This document shows, one piece after another, positions 909-16,979 of a stretch of 64,000 bases of DNA. This DNA is from Muriicola sp. Z0-33. Its GTDB lineage: Bacteria; Bacteroidota; Bacteroidia; Flavobacteriales; Flavobacteriaceae. Location of the stretch: positions 124,001 through 188,000 of the forward strand of contig NZ_JAFMPW010000004.1 of assembly GCF_026126425.1 (NCBI RefSeq), in the 5' to 3' direction. How positions within the stretch are numbered: the first letter of the stretch is position 1; the number at the start of each line of letters is the position of its first letter. A program made the position numbers and the translations under genes. The notes beneath the pieces were generated by a model. The model had not been told where the DNA came from, searched no databases, and saw only the letters and a program-made list of their open reading frames with translations.

Positions 909-1291
909 AAATATTTCCCTTGTTATAATACCGCTATAAATAGACTACTTAAAAGCCAGTAACATTATAGTAACAGTATTAGTAACAAATATAAGAAAAT
1001 AAAAGAAATGAAAGATGAGGTTTTGAAGTCTTAACTATTTGATTATCTTTAACTTTAGATAACATTTTATTTCCTTTGTTATCAAGGTTTTGTACCCGCC
1101 TCGAGTACTTAAGCCATACATATCTTATTGATTTATAGGGCTTTATTATTAGCAATGCTAAATTCTTCCCGACATTTTAGCAATTAAAATGAATGGTCAT
1201 CAAGGCAACGGTTTCAGTTTTCTTAAATACTGTACTTTGTCCTAAGAATGCTAATCAGCAAATAGTAAACCATTAAGTTCCATTATTAAGT
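909..1291. other. Intergenic region, no gene seen
   Basis: This AT-rich gap lies between the recombinase start and the end of the STAND gene, both on the minus strand. I found no credible ORF, RNA gene or clear terminator. It must hold the promoter of the recombinase, but no convincing match to the Bacteroidota consensus (TTG, then TAnnTTTG) stands out. An attachment site could be here but cannot be recognised without the other junction. Confidence 0.5.
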
Positions 1292-4200
1292 TTATAAATC
1301 AATTAAAAATTCTAAGTAATTATCATAGTCTATATTACAATTCACTTTACAGGAGCGATTCCTATCCAAAAAGGAATTCAATTCAATTAGATGTTCTTCA
1401 TAGATTTCCTTCTCAACGCTTAGGGAAATAAGGCTGGTAAGATTTACAATACTATTTATACTTTTAAGGCCAGAATTATCTCCTAGGGTCAGGGAAGTGA
1501 GGTTGGTTAACTTTTCAATACCTTCTAAACTGGTAAGACTATCATTATTATCAAGGGTCAGGGAAGTGAGGTTGGTTAACTTTTCAATGCCATCCAAACT
1601 GGTAAGGCCATAATTACGTTCAAGGGTCAAGGAAGTAAGACCATTTAACCCTTCAAGACCTTCTAAACTGGCAAGGCCAGAATTACCTTCAAGGATCAGG
1701 GAAGTAAGGTTGGTCAACTTTTCAAGACCTTCTAAACTGGCAAGGCCAGAATTACCTTCAAGGATCAGGGAAGTAAGGTTGGTCAACTTTTCAATGCCAT
1801 CCAAACTGGCCAGGCCAGAATTACCTTCAAGGGTCAGGGAAGTAAGGTTAGTTAACTTTTCAATGCCATCCAAACTGGCAAGGCCAGAATTACCTTCAAG
1901 GGTCAGGGAAGTGAGGTTGGTTAACTTTTTAAGACGTTCTAAACTGGTAAGACTATTATTATTAAAAAGAGTCAACGAAGTAAGGCCATTTAACCTTTCA
2001 AGTCCTTCTAAACTGGTAAGGCCAGAATTACCTCCGAGGGTCAGGGAAGTGAGGTTGGTTAGCTTTTCAATGCCATCCAAACTGGTAAGTCTATTATTAT
2101 TAAATAGAGTCAATGAAGTAAGACCAGTCAGATTTTCAATTCCCTTTAGGCTCCTAAGAGAGTAATTATTTTTTAATGCCAGGGTATTAAGCGATTTAAT
2201 ATCATTAAGTGACTTCAAATTATTTATTCCATTAACAGAAGTAACTGTTAATTCAGAAAGTGATGAAAGTTGTTCTATACCTGTTAAACGGTGTAATTTG
2301 TAATTATTTAAAATGGCCAAGTAATTAAGACTAGTTAACTTTTCAATACCATCTAAACTGGTAAGGCCTGAATTACCTTCAAGGGTCAGGGAAGTAAGGT
2401 TGGTTAATTTTTTAATACCTTCTAAACTGGCAAGACTATCATTATTATCAAGGGTCAGGGAAGTGAGGTTGGTTAACTTTTCAATGCCATCCAAACTGGT
2501 AACGCTATAATTACGTTCAAGAGTCAAGGTGGTAAGGCCATTTAACCTTTCAAGACCTTCTAAACTGGCAAGGCCAGAATTACGTTCAAGGGTCAGGGAG
2601 GTAAGACCATTTAACCTTTCAAGACCTTCTAAACTGGCAAGGCCAGAATTACGTTCAAGGGTCAGGGAAGTAAGCTTGGGTAAGTTTTTAAGACCTTCTA
2701 AACTGGCAAGACTATCATTATTATCAAGGGTCAGGGAAGTAAGGTTGGGTAAGTTTTTAAGACCTTCTAAACTGGCAAGACCAATATTATTATCAAGGGT
2801 CAGGGAAGTGAGGTTGGTTAACTTTTCAATACCTTCTAAACTGGTAAGACTATTATTTTCAATAATCGTTACCGTATCAATTCTAATATTGTTTTTAAAA
2901 CCATTTAAAAAATCAAGATTTCCCTTTACACTGGATAGTATCGATAGATGATTCAAATTTTCGAATAAATTTAGATTACCCCGCAAAACCGATTCCGTAA
3001 AAGGGGATACAGTTACAGTTTTAATTGAATCAAGATTTCTTCCATATCTTAAAAATTCAAAATATAAGCTCTTATCAACTAAAGATTCAATATCACTTAT
3101 GAATTCCTTTTTTTGCCTATTTAAAACTGCAAAACTTATGGTATAAAATAGTATTATACTCAAGAATATAATTATCCCAGTACCTCTATAAATTTTACTG
3201 TTTAAGGTTTTTTTAGCTTGTAATAAAAAAGTGTCAATTTCCTCATTGCAAAGATCGGGATTACTAGTGGACCACTTCCTGGCTCTTGCCAATTGTTTCC
3301 TTCCATACAGCAGTCGTTCCTCTCCTTTTTTAAACGCAGCAATATCCAGAATTATCCTTTTCTTCTGTTCCAGTGCTTCTCTCCTTTCATCTATCCAGCC
3401 TTTTAGTCGATCCCATTTGCGTATTAATACTTCATGGATTATACTCACGTTTATGGAAGTATCTTTACTTTCAAAAACATGTATAAGACGACTTTTTTCA
3501 CTCACTAGGACCTCAAATATTTCGGTAATGATATGCTCCGGATACATTTTCAAAATAGAATACAAATCAGTCTTTAATACCGTTCTTTTAACATCTAAGA
3601 GATTCTCATTGACTTCCACAAGATTCACAAAAATGCTTTTTAGAATAGCCTCTTTTACTTTATCCCTTCCATGATTCGTTATTCTCTTGACGACTTGTTC
3701 CGCATGGGTTTCTATAATACCAGCAATACCTTTCCCTTCAGAAATTTGACTAAATTCTGTTGTACTTATGAGTCGATCCGCTATGGATTCTTGATTCCAG
3801 ATACGTTGCAGGGTAAATTGTAATATGGATAAAGAGCCTTCTACTTCTTTAATCTGATTGGTAATTTCATTCACTAATTCTTTTTCAATGACCACACCAT
3901 TTTTAAGAGCAGGCCTGGTAATAATTTCTTCCATACTCTGTTGCCAATTGGGGGCATGCACTTTATAGTCAAGGCTGCTTATTGGAAAAATGATCTGATG
4001 GTTTTTTACAAAGTCAAAATTGGCCAGTTGGGAAAGGAAATCACTCCGAAATGTTGTGATCACAACAATACCTGAAACCGTTCTTTCAGGATCAACAACT
4101 TCTTCCAAAAAATCAAAAAGCTGTTTTCTTTCTTCCAGACCTTCGGGAGAATTGCATTGGGTGATCACTTCTTCGAACTGGTCGAAAAATAGAATTAATT

Positions 4201-5011
4201 TAGCTGTCCTTGTTGCATTAGACAATACTTCTTCATCAGAAATACCCACTAGCTTCAATTGGTATTTAAGGTTGGTAAAAGGTTCACTTCCCGGAGTAAT
4301 TATGATTTGTAAATGATCTGAAAAACCTAGTTCTTCCCTTTTTTTAAGTCTATAGAGTAGTCCTGCACGAACAAACGAGCTTTTCCCCGTCCCAGAGTTT
4401 CCAATCACGGATATATTGGAAGGGCCACTTTTTGTAATTATCTTTTTTAAACAATCTTCCAGTTCCTGATCCCGCCCAAAGAAATAACCCCCGTCTTCTA
4501 CCTCAAAAGAGGCAAGCCCTTTATAGGGGTTCTTATTATTGATAGGTGACTCAGATGCAAAAGGGATCAGGCATTCAAAAAGAATATTCTTGAGCTCAGT
4601 AAGATCTTTGAAGGTGTGTATGGGTCTTCCATCAAACTTCCCCAATAACTCATTGTGTTTGGTTTTATTGTCAATTATCGCCTCATCAAAAGACTCCAGA
4701 CGCAAACAGAAGATGTATTTGTCATTGGCCAGGGCTGTATCTAATTCTATTTCGGTATAGGTTCTTTCTTCATCTGGAGGAAATGAACCTGTTCTATTGC
4801 CAAGAATAATGATATAAATGTCACTGCTTTGGACGGCTTCAACACAATCATCTACAAAAGGTGCATAGGTTCCATCGTCGAACATCCTTTCCATGATCTC
4901 ACTCAACTCAAAATTATTCTTGAGCTGATTTTGAAAAAGATTGATTAATTCGAACCTGAAATCCTTTAGATCCCTAAATGTAGAGGATATGTAGACCTTC
5001 CATTTTGGCAT
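1292..5011 (-). CDS. DUF4062-STAND NTPase-TM-leucine-rich repeat protein
   Basis: This is a 1239-residue NLR-like protein. Residues 4-110 match DUF4062 (VYISSTFRDLKDFR motif), the domain that also starts animal NWD1 and TEP1. A STAND P-loop NTPase of the nSTAND1 type follows: NPYKGLASFE entry motif at 161, Walker A GNSGTGKSS at 204-212, Walker B KLILFFDQFEE around 271-281, and a winged-helix-like motif IIHEVLIRKWDRLKGW at 524-539. A single hydrophobic segment spans 609-631, then about 20 leucine-rich repeats of 23 residues run from about 710 to 1195. The known logic of the family is ligand sensing by the repeats, NTP-driven assembly, then activation of the N-terminal domain. An antiphage or conflict role is inferred. 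Charges on both sides of the membrane segment leave topology open. It sits next to integrase remnants in an accessory region. Confidence 0.85.
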   Translation of the reverse strand: MPKWKVYISSTFRDLKDFRFELINLFQNQLKNNFELSEIMERMFDDGTYAPFVDDCVEAVQSSDIYIIILGNRTGSFPPDEERTYTEIELDTALANDKYIFCLRLESFDEAIIDNKTKHNELLGKFDGRPIHTFKDLTELKNILFECLIPFASESPINNKNPYKGLASFEVEDGGYFFGRDQELEDCLKKIITKSGPSNISVIGNSGTGKSSFVRAGLLYRLKKREELGFSDHLQIIITPGSEPFTNLKYQLKLVGISDEEVLSNATRTAKLILFFDQFEEVITQCNSPEGLEERKQLFDFLEEVVDPERTVSGIVVITTFRSDFLSQLANFDFVKNHQIIFPISSLDYKVHAPNWQQSMEEIITRPALKNGVVIEKELVNEITNQIKEVEGSLSILQFTLQRIWNQESIADRLISTTEFSQISEGKGIAGIIETHAEQVVKRITNHGRDKVKEAILKSIFVNLVEVNENLLDVKRTVLKTDLYSILKMYPEHIITEIFEVLVSEKSRLIHVFESKDTSINVSIIHEVLIRKWDRLKGWIDERREALEQKKRIILDIAAFKKGEERLLYGRKQLARARKWSTSNPDLCNEEIDTFLLQAKKTLNSKIYRGTGIIIFLSIILFYTISFAVLNRQKKEFISDIESLVDKSLYFEFLRYGRNLDSIKTVTVSPFTESVLRGNLNLFENLNHLSILSSVKGNLDFLNGFKNNIRIDTVTIIENNSLTSLEGIEKLTNLTSLTLDNNIGLASLEGLKNLPNLTSLTLDNNDSLASLEGLKNLPKLTSLTLERNSGLASLEGLERLNGLTSLTLERNSGLASLEGLERLNGLTTLTLERNYSVTSLDGIEKLTNLTSLTLDNNDSLASLEGIKKLTNLTSLTLEGNSGLTSLDGIEKLTSLNYLAILNNYKLHRLTGIEQLSSLSELTVTSVNGINNLKSLNDIKSLNTLALKNNYSLRSLKGIENLTGLTSLTLFNNNRLTSLDGIEKLTNLTSLTLGGNSGLTSLEGLERLNGLTSLTLFNNNSLTSLERLKKLTNLTSLTLEGNSGLASLDGIEKLTNLTSLTLEGNSGLASLDGIEKLTNLTSLILEGNSGLASLEGLEKLTNLTSLILEGNSGLASLEGLEGLNGLTSLTLERNYGLTSLDGIEKLTNLTSLTLDNNDSLTSLEGIEKLTNLTSLTLGDNSGLKSINSIVNLTSLISLSVEKEIYEEHLIELNSFLDRNRSCKVNCNIDYDNYLEFLIDL
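1430..2855 (-). repeat. Tandem 69-bp repeats encoding 23-residue LRRs
   Basis: About 20 tandem units encode the pattern NLTSLTLEGNSGLASLDGIEKLT. Many adjacent units differ by only one to a few bases; for example units 14 and 15 in the protein are identical in amino-acid sequence. Two or three diverged units in the middle (about 2170-2340) split the array into two homogeneous blocks. Such DNA-level similarity points to recent unit duplication or gene conversion, and copy number is likely to vary between strains. Variation concentrates at the two residues after the consensus Asn (for example NNIG, NNDS, RNSG, RNYS, GNSG). Confidence 0.9.
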
Positions 5012-5916: not shown

Positions 5917-6687
5917 TTATGCCGTTCTTTTTTCAATTGCATCATATTTCCGACCTTTGACCATTTCATTTATACCGGCGATTTGACATAATTCTTTGAT
6001 ATACTTATTGAAGTTTTGAATGGCTATGGGTTTAGGTAAGCCTTTCTCTAAAATCTCTCGGGTTTTATCAAGGATGGGAATTGTTACTTTCTTACCAGTT
6101 TTTTGTTGTGTGAGTTCAATAACATCTAAGCCATTTCTCGAAACAAAATTAGTTTCTCTTAAATTCAAAAGATCACTTCCGCGTTGCCCAAGGTTACATC
6201 CTAATAGGAGCCATCTACGGGCATTTCTATGCGCTTCACTTATCAACTCAGCTTCTTCGATACTTTGAAGCTCCTGCTTAAACCCTTCAATGAATAGAAG
6301 ATAGTATTGGTCTAAACTTATCGAATCATAAGGTAATGAAACGAGTATATCATATTCTAGATTCACAAATGAAGTTCTGACAGCCTTAAAAGTGTTGTTC
6401 TTTTCTGTTATAAAGAGCGTTTTAATTCTAAGACCATCTTCAATGGTATCAGTTTCCCAAATTTCTGATCCTGGCATATAAAATGTTACAGTGGAATCTA
6501 TTTCATATTCATACCATTCAAGGTCCTGCCCGAACATGACTGAGAAAGACATTAAAGTAATTATGGGTAGTAATATGAATGTCCAGCGTTTGCCTTTAAC
6601 AAATGGTCGATTTTTAAACTTTAGGTTGGTAATGGAAAAGAGTTCATTACAGGAAAAAAAAATATTACTAAAACCCCAATACCTCAT
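5917..6687 (-). pseudogene. Chimera: truncated secreted protein fused to recombinase fragment
   Basis: One open frame joins two unrelated pieces. Residues 31-54 look like a signal peptide ending MFGQ, and up to about 146 the sequence is an unrecognised secreted protein (IDSTVTFYMPGSEIWETD). From about residue 148 it is the first half of a Bacteroidota tyrosine recombinase catalytic domain: NARRWLLLGCNLGQRGSDLL with the box I arginine at 169, then QQKTGKKVTIPI. It stops after RKYDAIEKRTA, before the box II H/Y-x-x-R and the nucleophile tyrosine, so it cannot recombine DNA. Both parents are truncated, so I read it as an accidental in-frame deletion or insertion scar rather than a working gene. 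Expression and export of the fusion cannot be excluded. Confidence 0.75.
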
Positions 6688-7147
6688 TATTTGGTTATTT
6701 GAATACTGATAATTCGATTATAGATGGGGGTATTTAAAGGTAAAGAAAATATATTGGCGTTTAACTTAACCAAACCATAAGGATGGGTAAGTAGACGATT
6801 AATACGGAGTGAGGACCAAAGTTTTATAAAATATCCGCCAGCTATTTCCCTGACTACATTACTGGCCTTGCCGCGAAGTTAATTTAGGCGTTTTTTGAAC
6901 ACCTCATAGTGTCCATGTCAACCGAGCTCGACTGCGTAGATAAAACCCCAGTCTGTTTTGCTCAAATAGAGGGAAAGATCATTAATATCTACCCTTCTTT
7001 ATTATTAACGAATAATTATACTCTTAAACCACCAGCAGTAGGTTTTTTAACATTTTTTTGTTTTCTTAGCATTCACCCCAATTCCATCCTTTCCTGTCTT
7101 GGTAATTCAGTTCCCCATTGAATTAGAATTTGTCAAACCAACCATTT
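6688..7147. other. Intergenic region with a gene remnant
   Basis: This gap separates the chimeric pseudogene (leftward) from the surface lipoprotein (rightward). The only recognisable content is the remnant at 6883-6962. The rest has no credible ORF. The promoter of the lipoprotein gene should lie in the last 150 bp, but no clear consensus could be assigned. Confidence 0.4.
6883..6962 (-). pseudogene. Remnant of small conserved protein, copy 1
   Basis: Read on the minus strand this encodes KTDWGFIYAVELG, a stop codon, then HGHYEVFKKRL. The intact-looking counterpart at 10327-10405 encodes KTDWGFIYEVEHTGHIHYEVFKKRL. The roughly 80-bp match with an internal stop shows a decayed second copy of the gene at 10248-10481. 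The two copies are in direct orientation on either side of the lipoprotein gene. Confidence 0.75.
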
Positions 7148-10100
7148 ATGAAAACCATAAAAGGAATATCTATTGTCCTGTTCTCCATACTATTTCTTAT
7201 TACCTGCTCCAAAGGTGATGGAGAATCAGGAAATACAGATCAACCAGAAACCTTTAATCTAAATATATCTATTGAACCTTTTGGAGTAGCTGAGATTACC
7301 CCAGATAAAAAAGTATTCAATAAAGGTGAGATAGTCCAGGTTCGGGTTAATTCAATAACAGATAAATATGAGTTTGAAAATTGGTCGGGCGATACTTCAG
7401 GCAATTCCAATCAGGTTTCTGTTAAAATGGACTCGAATAAGGATATTACGGCGCATTTTTCCCGTATTTTTCAGACCCTTGATTTAGAGTCAGATGCCGC
7501 AAGTGAAGAAGAAGTAATTCTGGATACTGCCACTTACCAAGTCATCATTAATAAGGATGTTATTGGATCTAAATCCCTAAATATTGGAGATGTCATAACA
7601 GCCGATACATATCTTAGAAAAATAACGGAAATAAACGAATCTGAGTCGGAGCTATTTCTTGAAACGGAATTTGTTTCCATGGAAGAAGCTTTTGATAAAA
7701 TTGATCTAGAAATATCAGAAGAATTGGTTTTAGATGAAACTTCTAATGAGTCTGGCAAATGGGGCGGCATTGGCATTTTATCTCAAAAGGAGTCCAAAGG
7801 TCCTATTAAATTAACTATAAGTCCTCCAATCGAAGTTGTTCCCGGCGTTGAACTGACAGGATCTTATGAGTTTTCTATTACACCCAATATTAAAATTGAT
7901 AAACCCCTTTTCAAACCAATAAAAGAAATCAACTTCTCCTATAATATTAATTCCAAAACAACATTAACAGCTTCATTTCAGGCTTCAAATAGTATAGGCG
8001 GTGAAGTTCAAGTTGGAAATGATATAGTATTTCAACCTATAGTAACTGCTATTGCAGGTATCCCTGTTTACATTCAACCAATTGTTAAATTGTATGCGGG
8101 GGTAGAAGCTAGTTTGACAACTGATATTCAGACGAGTTATGTGCACGAACTAATTACCACCAATACACATCGATATTATAATGGTGAATGGACTACAACT
8201 AAAGAAAAGTCAGAAAATGCCTCCTTTGATAAACCTGAATTAGAAAATACCCTTGAGTCAAAGATTTATTTGAAGCCAGAGTTGATCTTCAAGTTGTACA
8301 ATTTGGTTGGTCCTTTTGTAGATCTGGAATTAGGAGCTGGTGCAGAGGTTGCAATGGTGGATTGTGTAACATGGAATACTTATGGGTACATTGAAATGGG
8401 TGCCGGATTTAAGATGAAAATACTCAACCGACAATTTGATGTAGACTGGGATATTTTCTCTCTTGAACAAGTATTAAATTCTGGCGAGCTAGGATGTTCA
8501 GATTCCGGAGATGGTACTGACGATGGGACCGGTGACGGAACAGGTGATGGATCTGGAGATGGCTCCGGTGATGAAACTGGAGATGGGACAGGTGATGGGA
8601 GTGGAGATGGTACAGGTGATGGCGCCGGAGATGGTACAGATGGCGTCGGAGATGGGACTGGAGGAAATAGCGGGAATAATCTGGACCTTGACGAAGATGG
8701 CATAGACAATGAATATGATTGGTGTCCTGATACCCCCAGTGGAGAAAATGTTGACTCCAATGGATGTGCATTAAGCCAAAAAACTTGGGTAGAAGATGAG
8801 GCTTTTGAACATTATCTAGAGACTCACAGCATTAATGCAATTTATGCAACGGCTGTTGATTTAGGTTCCCCAGACTCCATGGGTGATGGAATCATAGGAA
8901 ATAATTTAGTAAGGACCTCCAAAGTTAAGATCGTTGAAAGATTGAATGTAAGTAAGCAAGAGCTTAATGATCCAAATATAACTATTCGTGATTTGACGGG
9001 AATTGAAGCTTTTGTAGCCCTAAGAACATTAGAAGCTAATGACAATGAATTGACAAGTATAGACCTTGGTAATAATATTAATCTAGACGCACTGGAAATA
9101 ATTAATAATAATCTTTCAACTATTGATTTAAGCAATAATGTAGCGCTAAGAGGGGTTGATTTGAGCAATAATAGTTTAACTACTCTAGATATATATAACA
9201 ATCCAATTCTTGAGGCAGTACGTATAGACCATAATAACATAAGCTCTTTAGACTTCTCGAGTAACCCAAGCATTCAAAGAGTATATTTCAGCTCTAATCG
9301 TGTTTTGAATTTCGTGGCCACCTCTTCAATGAACACCATTGTTGGCCAAAGTAATGAGCTAGAAGCTATGGACTTATCAAATGCGACAAGTTTGCTAAGG
9401 TTGGATGTAAGAAACAATAGGTTGACCTCACTCGACATTTCTGCTGCTCACCCCACAGCGGGAACTGTAGCATTAAATAACAATTTAACCTGTGTACAAG
9501 TAAATCAGGAACAACTTGAGTTAGCGGAGAATAATGGATATGGAAATTTTGCTCTAGATCCTGGAGTATTAGTTTCCCTTGATTGTAATAACTCGTCTGA
9601 TCCTGACCAAGATGGGGATGGTGTTTTAAATGAGAATGATCTATGTCCTGGAACCCAAATTGGCACCTCTGTTGATATAAATGGCTGTCCAATAAATACT
9701 TCTACAAATCTTCTTACAAATGGCAGTGCAGATCAGGGCACTCAGAATTGGATAGTATTTGGAGATTCTGGCACAGAATCATACTCTGGTCAAAATGTAT
9801 TTTTCACCAAAGATATAGTGGACAATGCTTCATATCTATTTCAAGATGTTCTAATAGGAAGTGGAAATCAGAGTAAATACATTCTTTTAATTGGTAATTT
9901 ATGGGTTGAAGACGAAGTGTCAGGTTCAATAACTAGACATCCTTCGCTATATGGATACCAAATGTCAGGAGACACATTTATAGAGGCATATATGCAAGGT
10001 CAGGATTTGTGGCACGATGCCCCAGCAGGAATATGGCAAGAAAGAAGCGGCATATACGAGATACTCCCTAATGTGGATAGAATACGCTTATTCTTATCAC

Positions 10101-10234
10101 AGCAAGCACAAGTCGGAGACGATCCTGATGGCACAAAAGCTTTATATGATGATGTTGAAATTCGAATTTTTAACTCATTAGAAGAGGCTATAAATTATAG
10201 GGATAATATCTATAATCCTTCAATTCAGAATTAG
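7148..10234 (+). CDS. Large modular surface lipoprotein with InlB-like, TSP3 and LRR parts
   Basis: The ATG at 7148 gives a 1028-residue protein with a lipoprotein signal peptide and lipobox FLITC (Cys20); an upstream TTG at 7130 is less likely. Residues about 37-105 resemble the divergent InlB B-repeat (EPFGVAEITPDKKVFNKGE, then FENWSGD). A middle beta-rich domain of unknown type follows, then a Gly-Asp linker (about 453-506), a thrombospondin type 3-like calcium motif (DLDEDGIDNEYDWCPD), short leucine-rich repeats (about 617-757), a second TSP3-like motif (DPDQDGDGVLNENDLCP, about 817) and a C-terminal jelly-roll-like domain. The order suggests an outer-membrane-anchored binding or adhesion protein. 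No enzyme motif is seen. The gene is flanked by two copies of a gene remnant, which suggests it arrived by insertion or duplication. Confidence 0.75.
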   Translation: MKTIKGISIVLFSILFLITCSKGDGESGNTDQPETFNLNISIEPFGVAEITPDKKVFNKGEIVQVRVNSITDKYEFENWSGDTSGNSNQVSVKMDSNKDITAHFSRIFQTLDLESDAASEEEVILDTATYQVIINKDVIGSKSLNIGDVITADTYLRKITEINESESELFLETEFVSMEEAFDKIDLEISEELVLDETSNESGKWGGIGILSQKESKGPIKLTISPPIEVVPGVELTGSYEFSITPNIKIDKPLFKPIKEINFSYNINSKTTLTASFQASNSIGGEVQVGNDIVFQPIVTAIAGIPVYIQPIVKLYAGVEASLTTDIQTSYVHELITTNTHRYYNGEWTTTKEKSENASFDKPELENTLESKIYLKPELIFKLYNLVGPFVDLELGAGAEVAMVDCVTWNTYGYIEMGAGFKMKILNRQFDVDWDIFSLEQVLNSGELGCSDSGDGTDDGTGDGTGDGSGDGSGDETGDGTGDGSGDGTGDGAGDGTDGVGDGTGGNSGNNLDLDEDGIDNEYDWCPDTPSGENVDSNGCALSQKTWVEDEAFEHYLETHSINAIYATAVDLGSPDSMGDGIIGNNLVRTSKVKIVERLNVSKQELNDPNITIRDLTGIEAFVALRTLEANDNELTSIDLGNNINLDALEIINNNLSTIDLSNNVALRGVDLSNNSLTTLDIYNNPILEAVRIDHNNISSLDFSSNPSIQRVYFSSNRVLNFVATSSMNTIVGQSNELEAMDLSNATSLLRLDVRNNRLTSLDISAAHPTAGTVALNNNLTCVQVNQEQLELAENNGYGNFALDPGVLVSLDCNNSSDPDQDGDGVLNENDLCPGTQIGTSVDINGCPINTSTNLLTNGSADQGTQNWIVFGDSGTESYSGQNVFFTKDIVDNASYLFQDVLIGSGNQSKYILLIGNLWVEDEVSGSITRHPSLYGYQMSGDTFIEAYMQGQDLWHDAPAGIWQERSGIYEILPNVDRIRLFLSQQAQVGDDPDGTKALYDDVEIRIFNSLEEAINYRDNIYNPSIQN
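8507..8667 (+). repeat. Gly-Asp-rich low-complexity tandem repeat
   Basis: Short units of 6 and 12 bp (ggagatgg-acaggtgat type) encode about 50 residues of GDGTGDGSGDG. It forms a flexible, acidic, probably calcium-binding linker inside the lipoprotein, just before the first TSP3-like motif. Open frames on the opposite strand here (Pro/Ser or His-rich) are artefacts of the repeat. Confidence 0.85.
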
Positions 10235-11315: not shown

Positions 11316-12938
11316 ATGGAACTAATCACCATAGCCCTTGAATTAGTTGTCATTACTATTTCAGAGAACAAGGAGGTGCCTGATGTAGATTCAGCTCCTA
11401 ACAACTTTGTTTCCGATTCTGTAAGATGGATTTATACATGGTTGGAAAGAGGAGAATATGTTGGACTCATTACGAAGTTAGAAGAGGAACCCGATTCTCC
11501 TAATCTTAGAGAAGAGTTAAGGTTGGCTATGATCAAAAGGGCAGAAGCAGTTACACGATTTACGCAGGAACTAGAGTGGTGGATTAAAGAATCTAAAAAG
11601 CCAAATCCTAAAATAAGGATGACACAATCAGGTGTTTTAATATTTGAAGACACAAATATTAAAGCACAAAGAGATAATATTTCTAAGGATATAATAAGCA
11701 AAGGAAATATTCAAATTGGCAGCAATTATAATTTAGGGGATTTTGGTATAGTTGGATCGGATGGTCCGGAAGGATCCAATAAATCGAGGAGCATAATTAA
11801 AATGCAAGGCAATAGGATTGAAGACCAACAGAGGGAATCAGTGGATTCTCTAACGACAGGTAATGGTCTAAAAACTAATTCCAAGAGTAAAAATATTGGT
11901 GAGCAGTCAAATGCAAAAAAATTCACAACAATTGATGTATTCTATGCTACTGATAGAAAAAAAACGGGGCATTCAAAACCTACTAAGAAATATGGTGGGG
12001 AGAGAAATAACTTAGCAGATAGTAATCAAGAACCTCTTCAATATGGCATTTGTAAAGTTAGTATCCCATCAAATCATGAGGTAGGGAAAATAGAAGCTCC
12101 TAAATGGTGGAAATTCGAATTTACTTCTAATCCTGAAAAACATATTGTCTTGAAAAAAGTACAAGAGAGTTCAAAAGATACATTTTTTCATGAAATGAAT
12201 GTGGCCATTCAATCCAGGAAAAAGGAAGAAGCTTTTGTATTTGTTCATGGATATAATGTGACATTCGCAGAGGCCGCAAAACGTACCGCACAAATTGCCT
12301 TTGATCTTAATTTCAATGGCGCACCAATTATGTACAGTTGGCCCTCTAATGGATTAATGGCTTCGTATACAATGGATGAAGCAAATATCGAATGGACCCA
12401 ACCCCATTTACAAAATTTCCTGAATGACATTATGCATAAATCAACTGCCAAGACTATCCATTTAATTGCCCACAGCATGGGCAATCGAGCCTTAACCAGA
12501 GCGTTTGCTGATTTAAGCAATAACCATAAGAAAGTGGTAAGTAAGAAATTTAAAAAAGTAATTTTGACAGCTCCGGACATAGATGCAGATGTATTCAAAA
12601 ATCAAATTGCTCCCGCAATGCTTAAATCCAAATCTCATATAACCTTATATGCCTCTTCAAATGACTTAGCACTCATAGCCTCGAAGAAAGTTCATGGCTA
12701 TCCTCGTGCAGGTGATTCAGGAGAGAAATTATTAGTGCTTAAGGGGATTGAAACTATTGATGCTTCAGACGTCAATACAGGACTTCTCGGACATTCATAC
12801 TTCGCAGAAAGTTTAGATATTATAACCGATATTTTCAAAATAATACACGAAGGAGTTCAAGCTTCTGAGAGGAAAGACTTAACGATAAAATCAGATGACC
12901 GGGGGGATTATTGGATAGTTCCAGGTAAAACTGTATAA
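11316..12938 (+). CDS. DUF900-type alpha/beta hydrolase with extra N-terminal module
   Basis: This 540-residue protein has a C-terminal alpha/beta hydrolase domain (about 205-510) of the DUF900 esterase/lipase-like group: DVFYATDR start, oxyanion motif FVHGYN (309-314), nucleophile elbow AHSMGN with Ser387, acid APDIDADVF (Asp421 or 423) and catalytic His493 in GHSYF. Residues 1-110 are a mostly helical module (YTWLERGEYVG, then LRLAMIKRAEAVTRF), followed by a low-complexity linker with ISKGNIQIGSNYNLGD. In predicted NTPase-based conflict systems, enzymes are often tethered through small N-terminal adaptor domains, and the convergent neighbour is a TIR-WD40 protein; a role as an effector is inference. 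No signal peptide is seen. The substrate is unknown. Confidence 0.75.
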   Translation: MELITIALELVVITISENKEVPDVDSAPNNFVSDSVRWIYTWLERGEYVGLITKLEEEPDSPNLREELRLAMIKRAEAVTRFTQELEWWIKESKKPNPKIRMTQSGVLIFEDTNIKAQRDNISKDIISKGNIQIGSNYNLGDFGIVGSDGPEGSNKSRSIIKMQGNRIEDQQRESVDSLTTGNGLKTNSKSKNIGEQSNAKKFTTIDVFYATDRKKTGHSKPTKKYGGERNNLADSNQEPLQYGICKVSIPSNHEVGKIEAPKWWKFEFTSNPEKHIVLKKVQESSKDTFFHEMNVAIQSRKKEEAFVFVHGYNVTFAEAAKRTAQIAFDLNFNGAPIMYSWPSNGLMASYTMDEANIEWTQPHLQNFLNDIMHKSTAKTIHLIAHSMGNRALTRAFADLSNNHKKVVSKKFKKVILTAPDIDADVFKNQIAPAMLKSKSHITLYASSNDLALIASKKVHGYPRAGDSGEKLLVLKGIETIDASDVNTGLLGHSYFAESLDIITDIFKIIHEGVQASERKDLTIKSDDRGDYWIVPGKTV

Positions 12939-13137: not shown

Positions 13138-15789
13138 CTAATTATTTTTTATCTTATACTTCAGTTTCTGAGCGCTGGACAAGGGCGCAATCTTGTTATT
13201 TTTTAGAAAATCTTCCATAGGCTTGACTACCTGGTATAAACGGGCAGTTCCCTTTCCAGTGTTTCCATCTCCAGAGCCACTAATAATTGTTCCGTTAGTA
13301 GAGAATGCCACAGCAAATATTGCTTCGTTATGACCCATAAATTCTTGTAATATATTTCCATTCAAATCCCGTAATCGCGTATAGGATAATGAGCCAATTA
13401 ATATTGAATTTCCATTTGGTGAAAAAGCTAAAGAAGTAACTGGATCATTAGAATTAATTATTTCACGCACATCATCAGTATTCAAATCCCATAAATTCAC
13501 AATCCCATCGTATGAACATGTTAGAATTGAATTACCATCTGGGGAAAATATAGCGAATTCAATCGGCATACTATGATAATGCGTAATCCCTTGTTTCAAT
13601 TCTCCACCAATGTCCCATAAACGTACCGAAGTTTCAGAAACGGTTAATATCTTGTTTCCCTCAGTTGCAAAAGCTACTCCTCGGACTACACCCTCATGGT
13701 TTGCAAATTCTCGAATCAGTCCACCGTTCCAATCCCATAATCTAGCTGTTAGATCCGAATGACCAGTGAGAATGGTTTTTCGATCGGGTGAAAAAGCCAT
13801 GGCAGAAATTGAATCTTTGGTAACTTTAAATTCTTTTATAACATCTCCATTTAAATCCCATATTTTGGCCGTATTATCCAAGGAGCCCGTTATAATATTT
13901 TTGCCATCTTGTGAAAAAGCTGCTGAAATCACCCAACCATTATGACCCTCATATTTTTGAAGTAAATTGCCTTCTAAATCCCATAAACGAGCAGTGCGGT
14001 CTCTTGACCCAGTTAGAATAGTCGCTCCATCTCGTGAAAAGGCTAAAGAAGAGATAAAATCATTGTGACCAGAAAACTCCTGAAGTAAATCTTTTTTCAA
14101 TTCCCATAAGCGCGAAGTCATGTCGTGAGACCCGGTAAGAATGAAATTTCCAATGGGAGCAAAAGCGACGGATGAAATTGGAGCTGTATGCCCCTTAAAC
14201 TCTTGTAGTAGTTCACCTTTCAAATTCCACAAACGTGCTGTCCTATCTATTGAACCCGTAAGAATACTGTCTCCTTCCCTTGAAAAGGTTACTGAAGTGA
14301 CATTGTCCGTGTGTCCTTCAAATTTACGTATCAAATTGCCATTTAAATCCCATAAGCTGGCTATTTTCTCAGAAGAACCTACTAATATTTTTTTTCCATC
14401 TGGTGAAAAAGATACATCCCAAATCGCATTGGAATGACTTCCAATTTTTCGCATCCATTGTCCATTTAATTCCCACAAGTAGACTTCATTGAACAATGTT
14501 CCAATTAATATTTTATCCCCCTCTGGTGAAAAAGCAACTGACATAATTTGCCCAGAATGACTAATATAAAACGGTAATAAATTTTCTAGAGACGAAGATG
14601 GCCAAATTTCATTTCCATTCAAATCCCACAATCTTGCTGTAGCATCGTCAGATCCGGTTAGTATTTTAGTCCCATCTGGTGAAAATACTGCCGAACGTAC
14701 AGCGGCAGAATGCCCTACAAATTCTTGAATGGATTCTCCATTTAATTTCCACAATCTTGCTGTGCTGTCCTGGGAAGCTGTAAGAATCTTGTCTCCTTGT
14801 GATGAGAAAGCCACGGAAGATATTGGACCGGTATGCCCTTTAAAAATTTGAATCAATTTTCCGTTTAAATCCCATAAATGAGCATCATTTTCCAATGATC
14901 CCGTTAAGATGTTTTGGCCATCTGGCGAAAAGGCTACCGACTGAATAAAATTTGTTTCTTTTGAGACAATGTTATAAAAATTATTTTCCCGATATATTTT
15001 AAGGGCGTCTCTATAAGGATCGTCTGAATTATTTATTTTCATTGCATTTTCTGCTAATCTCAAGGCCAGCGTTGGATCCTCATACTTTTGCCTGTTGACT
15101 TCTGAATTGAGATAATTAGCTTCGGCCTCTTTGCGATTACTCTCTGCACGTTTATAAAATATAAACGTAGCGATTAGGAGAAAGCAAAGTGAAATAAAGA
15201 TGGTATTTCTAAGAACCATCATTTTGCGATGTGTTGTAACTTCTTCACTTGCCAAGTCATTAGGTGTCTTATTGTGTAGTTTAGCCGCTACCTTTAGTAC
15301 CTCCTTATTAAAAATGGGATTATTTAAAGATAAGTCTTCTTCTGTTTTGGATTGGCGGAGGTCAATATAAAATGGTTCTAATTTAAACTTATCATCAAGT
15401 ACTGGAGGTAGTGAATTATTATCTGGATTTTGATAACAATTATTTGCGTTATCCCAAATCATTTCGCCTTCAGTCAATGCTATTAAAATAGTTTTGACAG
15501 CTTTATCTTTAGGTTTATGTTCTAGCCAGTATTCAACTTCTTTATTTACCCATTCTGACTTTTCCGACTGAGGTGATGCTAAAAGTATAAGGTATTCAGA
15601 CTGGTCTAACGCCTTGGTAATGTTGTCCCAGAGATGAGGAGAAGCTGAAAGACTGGATTCATCTCTAAAAATTTCAAGGTTTCGCTTTTTGTACCAGGGT
15701 TTGGCAAACTTTTGCAATGCAGTCTGTAGCGCTGGCGCAAACTTATTATCCGCTTCGTGAGAGTATGAAATGAAAGCATTGTACTTCAT
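13138..15789 (-). CDS. TIR domain-TM-WD40 repeat protein
   Basis: This 883-residue protein starts with a TIR domain (KYNAFISYSHEAD, residues 1-145) that keeps the Glu84 in SEWVNKE expected of NAD-cleaving TIR domains. One membrane helix spans about 195-213. A charged helical stretch and the segment DPTLALRLAENAMKI (238-252) follow, as seen between the membrane segment and propeller in many STAND/WD40 proteins. From about 280 to 865 there are 14 WD40 repeats (pattern VAFSPDGxxILTGSxDxTARLWDLNG), enough for two seven-bladed propellers. There is no NTPase domain. TIR proteins of this kind sense a trigger and deplete NAD or make a nucleotide signal, often in phage defence; here that role is inferred. 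It converges with the hydrolase gene. Confidence 0.88.
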   Translation of the reverse strand: MKYNAFISYSHEADNKFAPALQTALQKFAKPWYKKRNLEIFRDESSLSASPHLWDNITKALDQSEYLILLASPQSEKSEWVNKEVEYWLEHKPKDKAVKTILIALTEGEMIWDNANNCYQNPDNNSLPPVLDDKFKLEPFYIDLRQSKTEEDLSLNNPIFNKEVLKVAAKLHNKTPNDLASEEVTTHRKMMVLRNTIFISLCFLLIATFIFYKRAESNRKEAEANYLNSEVNRQKYEDPTLALRLAENAMKINNSDDPYRDALKIYRENNFYNIVSKETNFIQSVAFSPDGQNILTGSLENDAHLWDLNGKLIQIFKGHTGPISSVAFSSQGDKILTASQDSTARLWKLNGESIQEFVGHSAAVRSAVFSPDGTKILTGSDDATARLWDLNGNEIWPSSSLENLLPFYISHSGQIMSVAFSPEGDKILIGTLFNEVYLWELNGQWMRKIGSHSNAIWDVSFSPDGKKILVGSSEKIASLWDLNGNLIRKFEGHTDNVTSVTFSREGDSILTGSIDRTARLWNLKGELLQEFKGHTAPISSVAFAPIGNFILTGSHDMTSRLWELKKDLLQEFSGHNDFISSLAFSRDGATILTGSRDRTARLWDLEGNLLQKYEGHNGWVISAAFSQDGKNIITGSLDNTAKIWDLNGDVIKEFKVTKDSISAMAFSPDRKTILTGHSDLTARLWDWNGGLIREFANHEGVVRGVAFATEGNKILTVSETSVRLWDIGGELKQGITHYHSMPIEFAIFSPDGNSILTCSYDGIVNLWDLNTDDVREIINSNDPVTSLAFSPNGNSILIGSLSYTRLRDLNGNILQEFMGHNEAIFAVAFSTNGTIISGSGDGNTGKGTARLYQVVKPMEDFLKNNKIAPLSSAQKLKYKIKNN

Positions 15790-16247: not shown

Positions 16248-16979
16248 ATGAGTGGATTAGCGAAAAGTTTTCAAAAGGCAATTAAAAGAGAATTAGGAAC
16301 CAATGCGGCCTGGTTACCTGTTTCCAATACATTGAAAATAGGGGATTACGGATTTTTTGAAGACGGGGTTTTCAGATCTATAGGGAATATCACGGACAAA
16401 TATCCCGGTATTGAGCTTAAGATTGCTATTGGATCTCCCACCAAAATCAATTTCACTTCAGAGGGGACAAAAACCTTTAAACTAGACGCCGGTGGTAATA
16501 CTACCAATTCCTTTGAGGCCTTAGGGGAAGCAAATGCGTCGCTTAAATTTGCTTTTAACAAAAGTGATTCTGTGGTTGTCAAAGCCAGTGAAGTTGGGGT
16601 AGATCAACTCCAGAATATAGAAAGTGTAGCTAATGTGCTGGCATCAAAATCTGACTGGAAAAACAAATTCAAGGTGGTCTCTGCGGCTTATACGGCAAAA
16701 AACTGCCTTATTGTCTGCGCAAGGGAAGCCGGAACAGAGTTTGCCATAAATGCCAATGCTAATATTTTAAAGGAAATTGACGCAGGTAAAGTCAACGGTT
16801 CAATTGAAACAACCTCCTCTAACAACAGTACCTTTGAATCAATCGGCGAAACCGGGGTGATTGCCATCAGACTTTTTAAGCTGAATATCTTCAATCAGTT
16901 ACGCATGCGCGGCCCTGCCTCCACAGCCAGTGTGGAAATTCAGGAAATCTTCGATATGGATCCAGAAGATGATTTTTAA
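16248..16979 (+). CDS. Unrecognised 243-residue protein
   Basis: I do not recognise the family with certainty. The protein begins MSGLAKSFQKAIKRELGTNA, an amphipathic helix, then WLPVSNTL and IGDYGFFEDGVFRSIGNI, followed by alternating beta-like segments and a short acidic tail (DMDPEDDF). There is no signal peptide or obvious membrane helix. The middle has an Ala/Ser/Thr-rich beta pattern, which together with the short C-terminal tail loosely recalls small pore-forming folds such as bacterial gasdermins, but no diagnostic motif or N-terminal acylation cysteine is visible, so this is speculation. Its place beside TIR-WD40 and STAND-LRR genes suggests it may belong to the same accessory defence set. 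Confidence 0.6.
   Translation: MSGLAKSFQKAIKRELGTNAAWLPVSNTLKIGDYGFFEDGVFRSIGNITDKYPGIELKIAIGSPTKINFTSEGTKTFKLDAGGNTTNSFEALGEANASLKFAFNKSDSVVVKASEVGVDQLQNIESVANVLASKSDWKNKFKVVSAAYTAKNCLIVCAREAGTEFAINANANILKEIDAGKVNGSIETTSSNNSTFESIGETGVIAIRLFKLNIFNQLRMRGPASTASVEIQEIFDMDPEDDF

What the first reader, a model, noticed from the sequence alone, without database searches (positions are those of the whole stretch)
1292..5011. NLR-like DUF4062-STAND protein with nearly identical leucine-rich repeats
Seen: DUF4062, P-loop STAND core with Walker A and B, a membrane segment, then about 20 LRRs of 23 residues whose 69-bp DNA units are nearly identical, in two homogeneous blocks split by diverged units. 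Known: STAND proteins with repeat sensors mediate conflict responses, and DUF4062 starts animal NWD1/TEP1. Inference: this is a rapidly diversifying immune-like receptor whose ligand surface can be reshuffled by repeat recombination. The combination of DUF4062, membrane segment and homogeneous LRRs is not one I know as a described defence system.
Basis: partly seen in the sequence, partly recalled or inferred. Interest (0 to 1): 0.75.

Follow-up and report, generated by a model that had tools for sequence, protein, structure and literature searches.

The report
Membrane-anchored NADase receptor with recombining LRRs
A Flavobacteriaceae genome carries a single-gene, NLR-like receptor predicted to join an NAD-destroying suicide enzyme to a molecular switch, a membrane anchor and a long leucine-rich-repeat sensor whose repeats have been copied and reshuffled since it split from its nearest relative; the enzyme part belongs to a family shown in 2026 to kill phage-infected cells.

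Summary
ORF 1292-5011(-), 1239 aa, is DUF4062 (5-93), nSTAND1 NTPase (162-563, E 2e-73), one transmembrane helix (~607-631) and an LRR solenoid with 21 in-register 23-aa units (711-1193). "Nearly identical" is somewhat strong: mean unit identity is 70% at DNA level; the homogeneous units match their nearest copy at 86-97%. DUF4062 is now a TIR-like NADase with antiphage activity (Swarozyc; PMC13174449). The catalytic Glu of KpSwz (E97) and human TEP1 (E1008) aligns with E89 here, invariant in 16 homologues. Only two full relatives turned up (Pricia antarctica 65%; genome G189 37-51%). Core synonymous sites are saturated between window and Pricia (pS 0.82), yet array units have nearest-copy pS ~0.11/0.17 and differ in consensus between species, so the arrays turned over independently. 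Exposed positions vary at about the neutral N/S ratio; positive selection is not shown. All 24 nSTAND1 proteins examined carry a TM helix just after the NTPase, with a positive-inside bias placing the repeats in the periplasm. Best reading: a transmembrane STAND receptor whose periplasmic LRR array senses a threat and activates cytosolic NAD+ depletion. New variant of a known kind; function and ligand untested.

The parts
1292..5011 (-). whole gene: DUF4062-nSTAND1-TM-LRR receptor, 1239 aa
   Evidence: ORF; Pfam; full-length relative in Pricia antarctica
4562..5011 (-). DUF4062 / TIR-like NADase domain, res 1-150 (Pfam match 5-93)
   Evidence: Pfam E 2.5e-12; profile hits KpSwz 10wc E 1.7e-24 and human TEP1 TIR 11gz E 1.2e-10
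4745..4747 (-). E89, predicted catalytic glutamate (YTEIELD)
   Evidence: invariant in 16 DUF4062 sequences; aligned column holds Ala in the KpSwz E97A chain and E1008 (chain position 115) in TEP1 (numbering by subtraction)
3323..4528 (-). nSTAND1 NTPase module, res 162-563 (Walker A K210, Walker B D277, winged-helix HE at 526-527)
   Evidence: Pfam E 2e-73; AF2 model matches Orc/Cdc6, NLRP7, Apaf-1 and NB-ARC at VIA Z 13.8-16.6 over res ~155-545
3119..3193 (-). transmembrane helix, res ~607-631
   Evidence: Kyte-Doolittle; same place in 23 other nSTAND1 proteins, positive-inside bias; inside a long predicted helix 590-644
2330..2881 (-). LRR block 1, res 711-894, 8 units of 69 bp
2123..2329 (-). 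three diverged LRR units, res 895-963
   Evidence: nearest-copy identity 48-64% nt; still LRR in the model
1433..2122 (-). LRR block 2, res 964-1193, 10 units; includes a shifted copy of block 1
   Evidence: 13-unit shift identity 0.85 over 552 bp
1095..1111 (+). right attachment site (17-bp repeat of the tRNA-Leu 3' end) of an integrated element that ends 181 bp before the gene's stop codon; context, not part of the receptor

Best explanation
A stand-alone, membrane-anchored STAND immune receptor. The C-terminal LRR solenoid lies in the periplasm and binds a phage- or intruder-derived (or damage) ligand. Binding is passed through the single TM helix to the cytosolic nSTAND1 NTPase, which exchanges nucleotide and oligomerises. 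[quoted passage not shown] The repeat array is renewed by recombination or gene conversion between units, which changes the unit number and the order of unit types and so could change the recognition surface. Shown here by computation: the domains, the conserved catalytic Glu, the P-loop, the TM, and independent array turnover. Inferred: NADase activity, oligomerisation, periplasmic sensor, antiphage role, and that repeat change alters specificity.
For: DUF4062 hits KpSwz and TEP1 NADase structures and E89 aligns with their catalytic Glu. DUF4062 proteins are antiphage NADases in the literature (PMC13174449). nSTAND1 module with STAND/AAA+ fold. TM in 24 of 24 nSTAND1 proteins, K+R N-side over C-side in 21, equal in 3, reverse in 0, Wilcoxon p 5e-5. 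LRR fold. Independent array turnover. Patchy distribution: full architecture in 3 of 397 sampled family genomes and in no further one of 395 at class level. Neighbouring TIR-WD40 and gasdermin-like genes and an integrated element.
Against: No phage, NAD+ or topology experiment exists for this gene. For the window protein itself K+R is 3 on both sides of the TM, so its orientation rests on its relatives. Human NWD1, NWD2 and NPHP3, also DUF4062-NACHT, showed no NADase activity in PMC13174449, so a DUF4062 with Glu may be inactive. PADLOC has no strong hit. No excess of nonsynonymous change at exposed sites.
Confidence: 0.5

Rival explanations
1. Same receptor logic, but the sensor is cytosolic: the hydrophobic segment only tethers the protein to the inner face of the membrane, and the LRR detects an intracellular phage protein, as portal does for KpSwz and terminase/portal for Avs.
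For: All characterised bacterial STAND defence sensors discussed in the papers read here detect intracellular phage proteins. The window's own flanking charges are neutral (3 against 3).
Against: Consistent positive-inside bias across 24 nSTAND1 proteins points to a C-terminus outside the cytosol; one long helix that continues through the segment fits a spanning TM.
Confidence: 0.2
2. A non-immune envelope sensor or regulated cell-death switch (cell-wall or osmotic stress, kin recognition or multicellular behaviour) that uses the same parts; ligand is a host molecule.
For: nSTAND1 proteins are broad and enriched in regulated-death networks of multicellular bacteria (PMC8195603, PMC10907252). 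Periplasmic placement suits envelope sensing.
Against: Patchy distribution and array turnover fit conflict better than housekeeping; neighbourhood holds other candidate conflict genes.
Confidence: 0.2
3. The repeat homogeneity has no adaptive meaning: slippage and conversion homogenise any tandem array, and the LRR is a generic structural or adhesive surface.
For: N/S at exposed positions is about 0.6-1.0, not above 1; highly repetitive repeat domains are common in prokaryotic WD40 proteins and read there as young duplications (PMC5587647). The G189 relative has an LRR array without homogeneous units.
Against: Scaffold positions are under strong constraint (N/S 0.09-0.16) while the same five exposed positions vary in both genera, a pattern like the HIC repeats of Podospora NLRs (PMC12222747).
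Confidence: 0.3

Closest known systems
Swarozyc (KpSwz), bacterial DUF4062 antiphage NADase (PMC13174449; PDB 10wc, 11cq, 11cv)
   Same: N-terminal DUF4062 TIR-like domain with the catalytic Glu column conserved
   Different: Swarozyc follows DUF4062 with a helical stalk and a small winged-helix AUX domain that binds phage portal; here there is an nSTAND1 NTPase, a TM helix and LRRs instead
TEP1 / NWD1 (animal DUF4062-NACHT-WD40)
   Same: order effector (DUF4062) - STAND NTPase - repeat sensor; TEP1 TIR is the second-best solved relative of the DUF4062 profile
   Different: NACHT not nSTAND1; WD40 not LRR; no TM after the NTPase is described in the text read
nSTAND1-TM-WD40 proteins of Bacteroidota (e.g. 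L015 TIR-nSTAND1-TM-WD40 in Pricia, L008, L025, L027)
   Same: nSTAND1 module followed by one TM helix and a repeat sensor
   Different: effector is TIR, caspase or none identified; sensor is mostly WD40; core identity only 22-27%
Podospora HNWD NLRs with high internal conservation (PMC12222747)
   Same: repeats homogenised within a gene, with variable exposed positions
   Different: fungal NACHT-WD40, proven diversifying selection and allelic recognition; here neither is shown
Bacterial NACHT proteins with LRRs (bona fide bacterial NLRs; Kibby 2023 as cited in PMC12169576)
   Same: STAND NTPase plus LRR in bacteria
   Different: NTPase clade is nSTAND1, effector is DUF4062, TM present

Membership tests
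DUF4062 TIR-like NADase family | DUF4062 domain above the curated cut-off | tested here: met
   47.3 bits against cut-off 24.7
DUF4062 TIR-like NADase family | catalytic Glu (KpSwz E97 / TEP1 E1008) | tested here: met
   E89, invariant in 16 sequences, in the column of the mutated KpSwz residue and of TEP1 chain position 115
DUF4062 TIR-like NADase family | NAD+ hydrolysis | not testable with these tools
   needs enzyme assay
Swarozyc antiphage system | C-terminal winged-helix AUX domain that binds portal | tested here: not met
   phmmer aligns only res 3-103 with KpSwz (second stretch 2.5 bits, not significant); what follows is nSTAND1
Swarozyc antiphage system | phage protection | not testable with these tools
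   needs plating
nSTAND1 STAND NTPases | Pfam nSTAND1 module with Walker A and B | tested here: met
   E 2e-73, 248.6 bits against cut-off 27.1
nSTAND1 STAND NTPases | TM helix about 375-485 aa after the P-loop, as in the Bacteroidota homologues | tested here: met
   24 of 24 proteins
NLR sensu stricto (NACHT or NB-ARC plus LRR) | NACHT or NB-ARC domain | tested here: not met
   no NACHT or NB-ARC family at E <= 0.1; nSTAND1 instead
NLR sensu stricto (NACHT or NB-ARC plus LRR) | C-terminal LRR | tested here: met
   Pfam LRR_4 and others; AF2 solenoid and internalin/Roco LRR matches
Avs / other catalogued defence STANDs | match to a PADLOC model | tested here: not met
   only weak hits, best mad8 E 0.0015
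DGR-diversified STAND sensors (PMC10907252) | C-type lectin variable region with reverse transcriptase | tested here: not met
   no lectin domain in the protein; RT not seen among the neighbours scanned

The most novel reading that the evidence does not exclude
A bacterial receptor that combines the topology of a Toll-like receptor (LRR ectodomain outside the cytoplasm, one TM helix) with the switch of an NLR (STAND NTPase) and a TIR-like NADase output, whose ectodomain is renewed by recombination between LRR units; it would be one member of a large, undescribed class of transmembrane nSTAND1 receptors with periplasmic repeat sensors.
Probability: 0.35. Interest if true: 0.75.

Novelty: new variant of a known kind. 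Interest (0 to 1): 0.5.

Why it matters
If true, bacteria use NLR-type switches to read threats outside the cytoplasm, with an ectodomain that can be re-assorted by repeat recombination. That would extend DUF4062 NADase defence from intracellular portal sensing to a membrane receptor, and make testable whether repeat turnover changes recognition, as in fungal HET-D/E. The positive-inside result suggests that this topology is general for the nSTAND1 proteins of Bacteroidota, which are common and uncharacterised.

Tried and rejected
Positive selection on exposed LRR positions: codon-by-codon minimum-change counts gave N/S per site 0.96 (window) and 0.77 (Pricia) at positions 5,7,8,10,11, p = 1 and 0.55; rejected as unproven. 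The raw pairwise counts look far more one-sided but reuse the same pairs. Positional homology between the window and Pricia arrays: no offset stands out (0.565-0.623), so unit-by-unit orthology is not detectable. Phage-borne copies: no relative in IMG/VR with the core profile; phage and plasmid records match only the nSTAND1 part at 23-31% identity. A donor array elsewhere in the same genome: none, all LRR matches lie in this gene. Other Pricia species: none of three carries the gene. Foldseek and VIA rows for the core model are filled by the AAA+ part, so the DUF4062 fold was tested by sequence profile only. Literature: no paper with 'Swarozyc' as plain text besides the preprint's own spelling, and only two papers with nSTAND1. 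The preprint's supplementary list of DUF4062 architectures could not be read, so a prior listing of DUF4062-nSTAND1-LRR is not excluded.

Full report
What was checked. Pfam gives DUF4062 (5-93), nSTAND1 (162-563, E 2e-73) and LRRs. The window is part of a 4.15-Mb, 49-contig Flavobacteriaceae genome, in which this is the only DUF4062 gene and one of two nSTAND1 genes.

N-terminal domain. DUF4062 was a domain of unknown function until a 2026 preprint showed it to be a TIR-like NADase: bacterial KpSwz ('Swarozyc') protects E. coli by NAD+ depletion after binding phage portal, and human TEP1 is an active NADase (PMC13174449). A profile of 16 DUF4062 sequences that includes the window hits KpSwz (10wc, E 1.7e-24) and TEP1 (11gz, E 1.2e-10). 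The second Glu of YTEIELD, E89, is invariant in the 16. Its column holds Ala in the KpSwz chain, which is the E97A mutant if chain numbering is shifted by 13, and Glu 115 in the TEP1 chain, which is residue 1008 if the 220-residue chain ends at 1113; both are the catalytic residues named in the preprint. The numbering is my subtraction. So the domain has what is needed for NADase activity, but NWD1, NWD2 and NPHP3 were inactive in that preprint, so activity is likely, not shown.

Switch. The nSTAND1 module has Walker A (GNSGTGKSS, K210), Walker B (LILFFD277QFEE) and a winged-helix HE motif (526-527) conserved in the alignment with its relatives. AlphaFold2 (26 sequences, mean pLDDT 83.6) gives a model whose residues ~155-545 align with Orc/Cdc6, NLRP7, Apaf-1 and plant NB-ARC structures at Z 13.8-16.6, the fold expected of STAND ATPases.

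Membrane segment. A hydrophobic helix lies at ~607-631, within a long predicted helix 590-644. It is not special to this gene: all 24 nSTAND1 proteins taken from this and other Bacteroidota genomes have a hydrophobic segment 377-484 residues after the P-loop (three of the 24 are DUF4062 proteins; two show a second, weaker segment elsewhere). In 21 of 24 the N-terminal flank carries more Lys and Arg than the C-terminal flank, in 3 they are equal, in none fewer (means 6.96 and 3.54, Wilcoxon p 5e-5; the proteins are related, so the p-value is a guide only). By the positive-inside rule the effector and NTPase are cytosolic and the repeats periplasmic. The window protein is one of the three ties. 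Nine of these relatives were scanned: seven carry WD40 repeats after the TM, one has an N-terminal caspase domain, and one has no other Pfam domain. Pricia also has a TIR-nSTAND1-TM-WD40 protein with near-identical WD40 repeats (L019; TM).

Repeat array. 21 in-register units of 23 residues (LTSLTLxxNxxLxSLxGIxxLxx) occupy 711-1193. AlphaFold2 gives one continuous solenoid, pLDDT 88; nearest solved folds are internalins, Roco LRR and SHOC2. Mean unit identity is 70% nt; nearest-copy identity is 86-97% for the 16 homogeneous units. Block 2 is a copy of block 1 shifted by 13 units (85% over 552 bp). Exact shared runs of 58-74 bp occur within and between blocks.

Turnover. The Pricia antarctica relative (65% identical core, full length) has 17 units of its own consensus (LNSLxIYxNEALTSLAGIENLTA). 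36 of 38 units are nearest to a unit of their own gene; the two exceptions are diverged central units. Core synonymous sites are saturated between the two genes (pS 0.82), but the nearest-copy pS within arrays is 0.11 and 0.17. The units were therefore copied or converted long after the genes parted. The third relative (G189) keeps DUF4062-nSTAND1-TM-LRR but with irregular, diverged LRRs, and its frame is broken into two overlapping ORFs near residue 222. So array homogeneity is not a fixed feature of the family.

Selection. In both arrays variation sits at positions 5,7,8,10,11 of the unit, on or beside the LRR strand face (the face is inferred from LRR geometry, not measured). Counted conservatively, N/S per site there is 0.96 and 0.77, against 0.09 and 0.16 at scaffold positions. 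This is free or mixed change on a constrained scaffold. It is compatible with recognition but does not prove diversifying selection.

Distribution and context. The full architecture was found in 3 of 397 sampled Flavobacteriaceae genomes, in no further one of 395 at class level, in one of four genomes of Pricia's genus, and in no IMG/VR contig. DUF4062 itself is in 79 of 395 phylum genomes. The gene stands alone; neighbours differ in the three genomes. It lies 181 bp outside a 5.3-kb element at tRNA-Leu with a G2P-type replication protein and a tyrosine integrase, bounded by a 17-bp direct repeat. Within 12 kb on the other side lie an integrase remnant, a TIR-WD40 gene and a gasdermin-like gene.

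Mechanism and comparison. The best-supported model is a transmembrane STAND receptor: periplasmic LRR sensor, cytosolic nSTAND1 switch, TIR-like NADase output. It works like an NLR and, in topology, like a Toll-like receptor. It is a member of the DUF4062 and nSTAND1 families by tested features; it is not a NACHT/NB-ARC NLR and lacks the AUX domain that defines Swarozyc. Precedents for its evolution are the HIC repeats of Podospora NLRs (PMC12222747) and highly repetitive prokaryotic WD40 proteins (PMC5587647). Novelty is in the combination and the topology, not in any single part.

Noticed in passing
L018 (G000:C44:112000-131500) 7767 to window 1111: 5.3-kb integrated element at tRNA-Leu(taa): 17-bp direct repeat CCCGCCTCGAGTACTTA, G2P/Phage_CRI replication protein (L018 9227-10162) and tyrosine integrase (L018 11857-12909); possibly a filamentous-phage-like or mobilisable element.
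   Followed up: partly
window 13138-15789 (-): TIR-WD40 protein, 883 aa, 12 WD40 stretches; N-terminus hits TIR effector models of Thoeris, SAVED-TIR and retron-TIR weakly.
   Followed up: no
window 16248-16979 (+): 243-aa protein with sub-threshold matches to bacterial gasdermin (NCBIfam E 2.7e-4, PADLOC E 0.0026), divergent from the TIR-WD40 gene; candidate gasdermin.
   Followed up: no
window 11316-12938 (+): DUF900 alpha/beta hydrolase with a ~200-aa N-terminal extension that has no Pfam match.
   Followed up: no
window 5917-6687 (-): ORF that joins an unrelated N-terminal part to the C-terminal part of a tyrosine integrase; looks like a remnant of an older element.
   Followed up: no
L019 5492-9994 (-): Pricia antarctica TIR-nSTAND1-TM-WD40 protein, 1500 aa, with near-identical WD40 repeats: a second homogeneous-repeat nSTAND1 receptor in the same genome as the closest relative.
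   Followed up: partly
21 Bacteroidota loci L006-L011, L015, L024-L037: Every nSTAND1 protein examined has a TM helix right after the NTPase with a positive-inside bias, which suggests a general class of receptors with periplasmic repeat sensors.
   Followed up: partly
L017 9043-9046: In genome G189 the relative is split into two ORFs that overlap by 4 bases inside the NTPase, just after the P-loop; broken gene, sequencing error or coupled two-subunit form, not resolved.
   Followed up: no
window 7130-10234 (+): 1034-aa lipoprotein-like protein with Asp/Gly-rich 12/24-bp repeats and a short, different LRR stretch.
   Followed up: no
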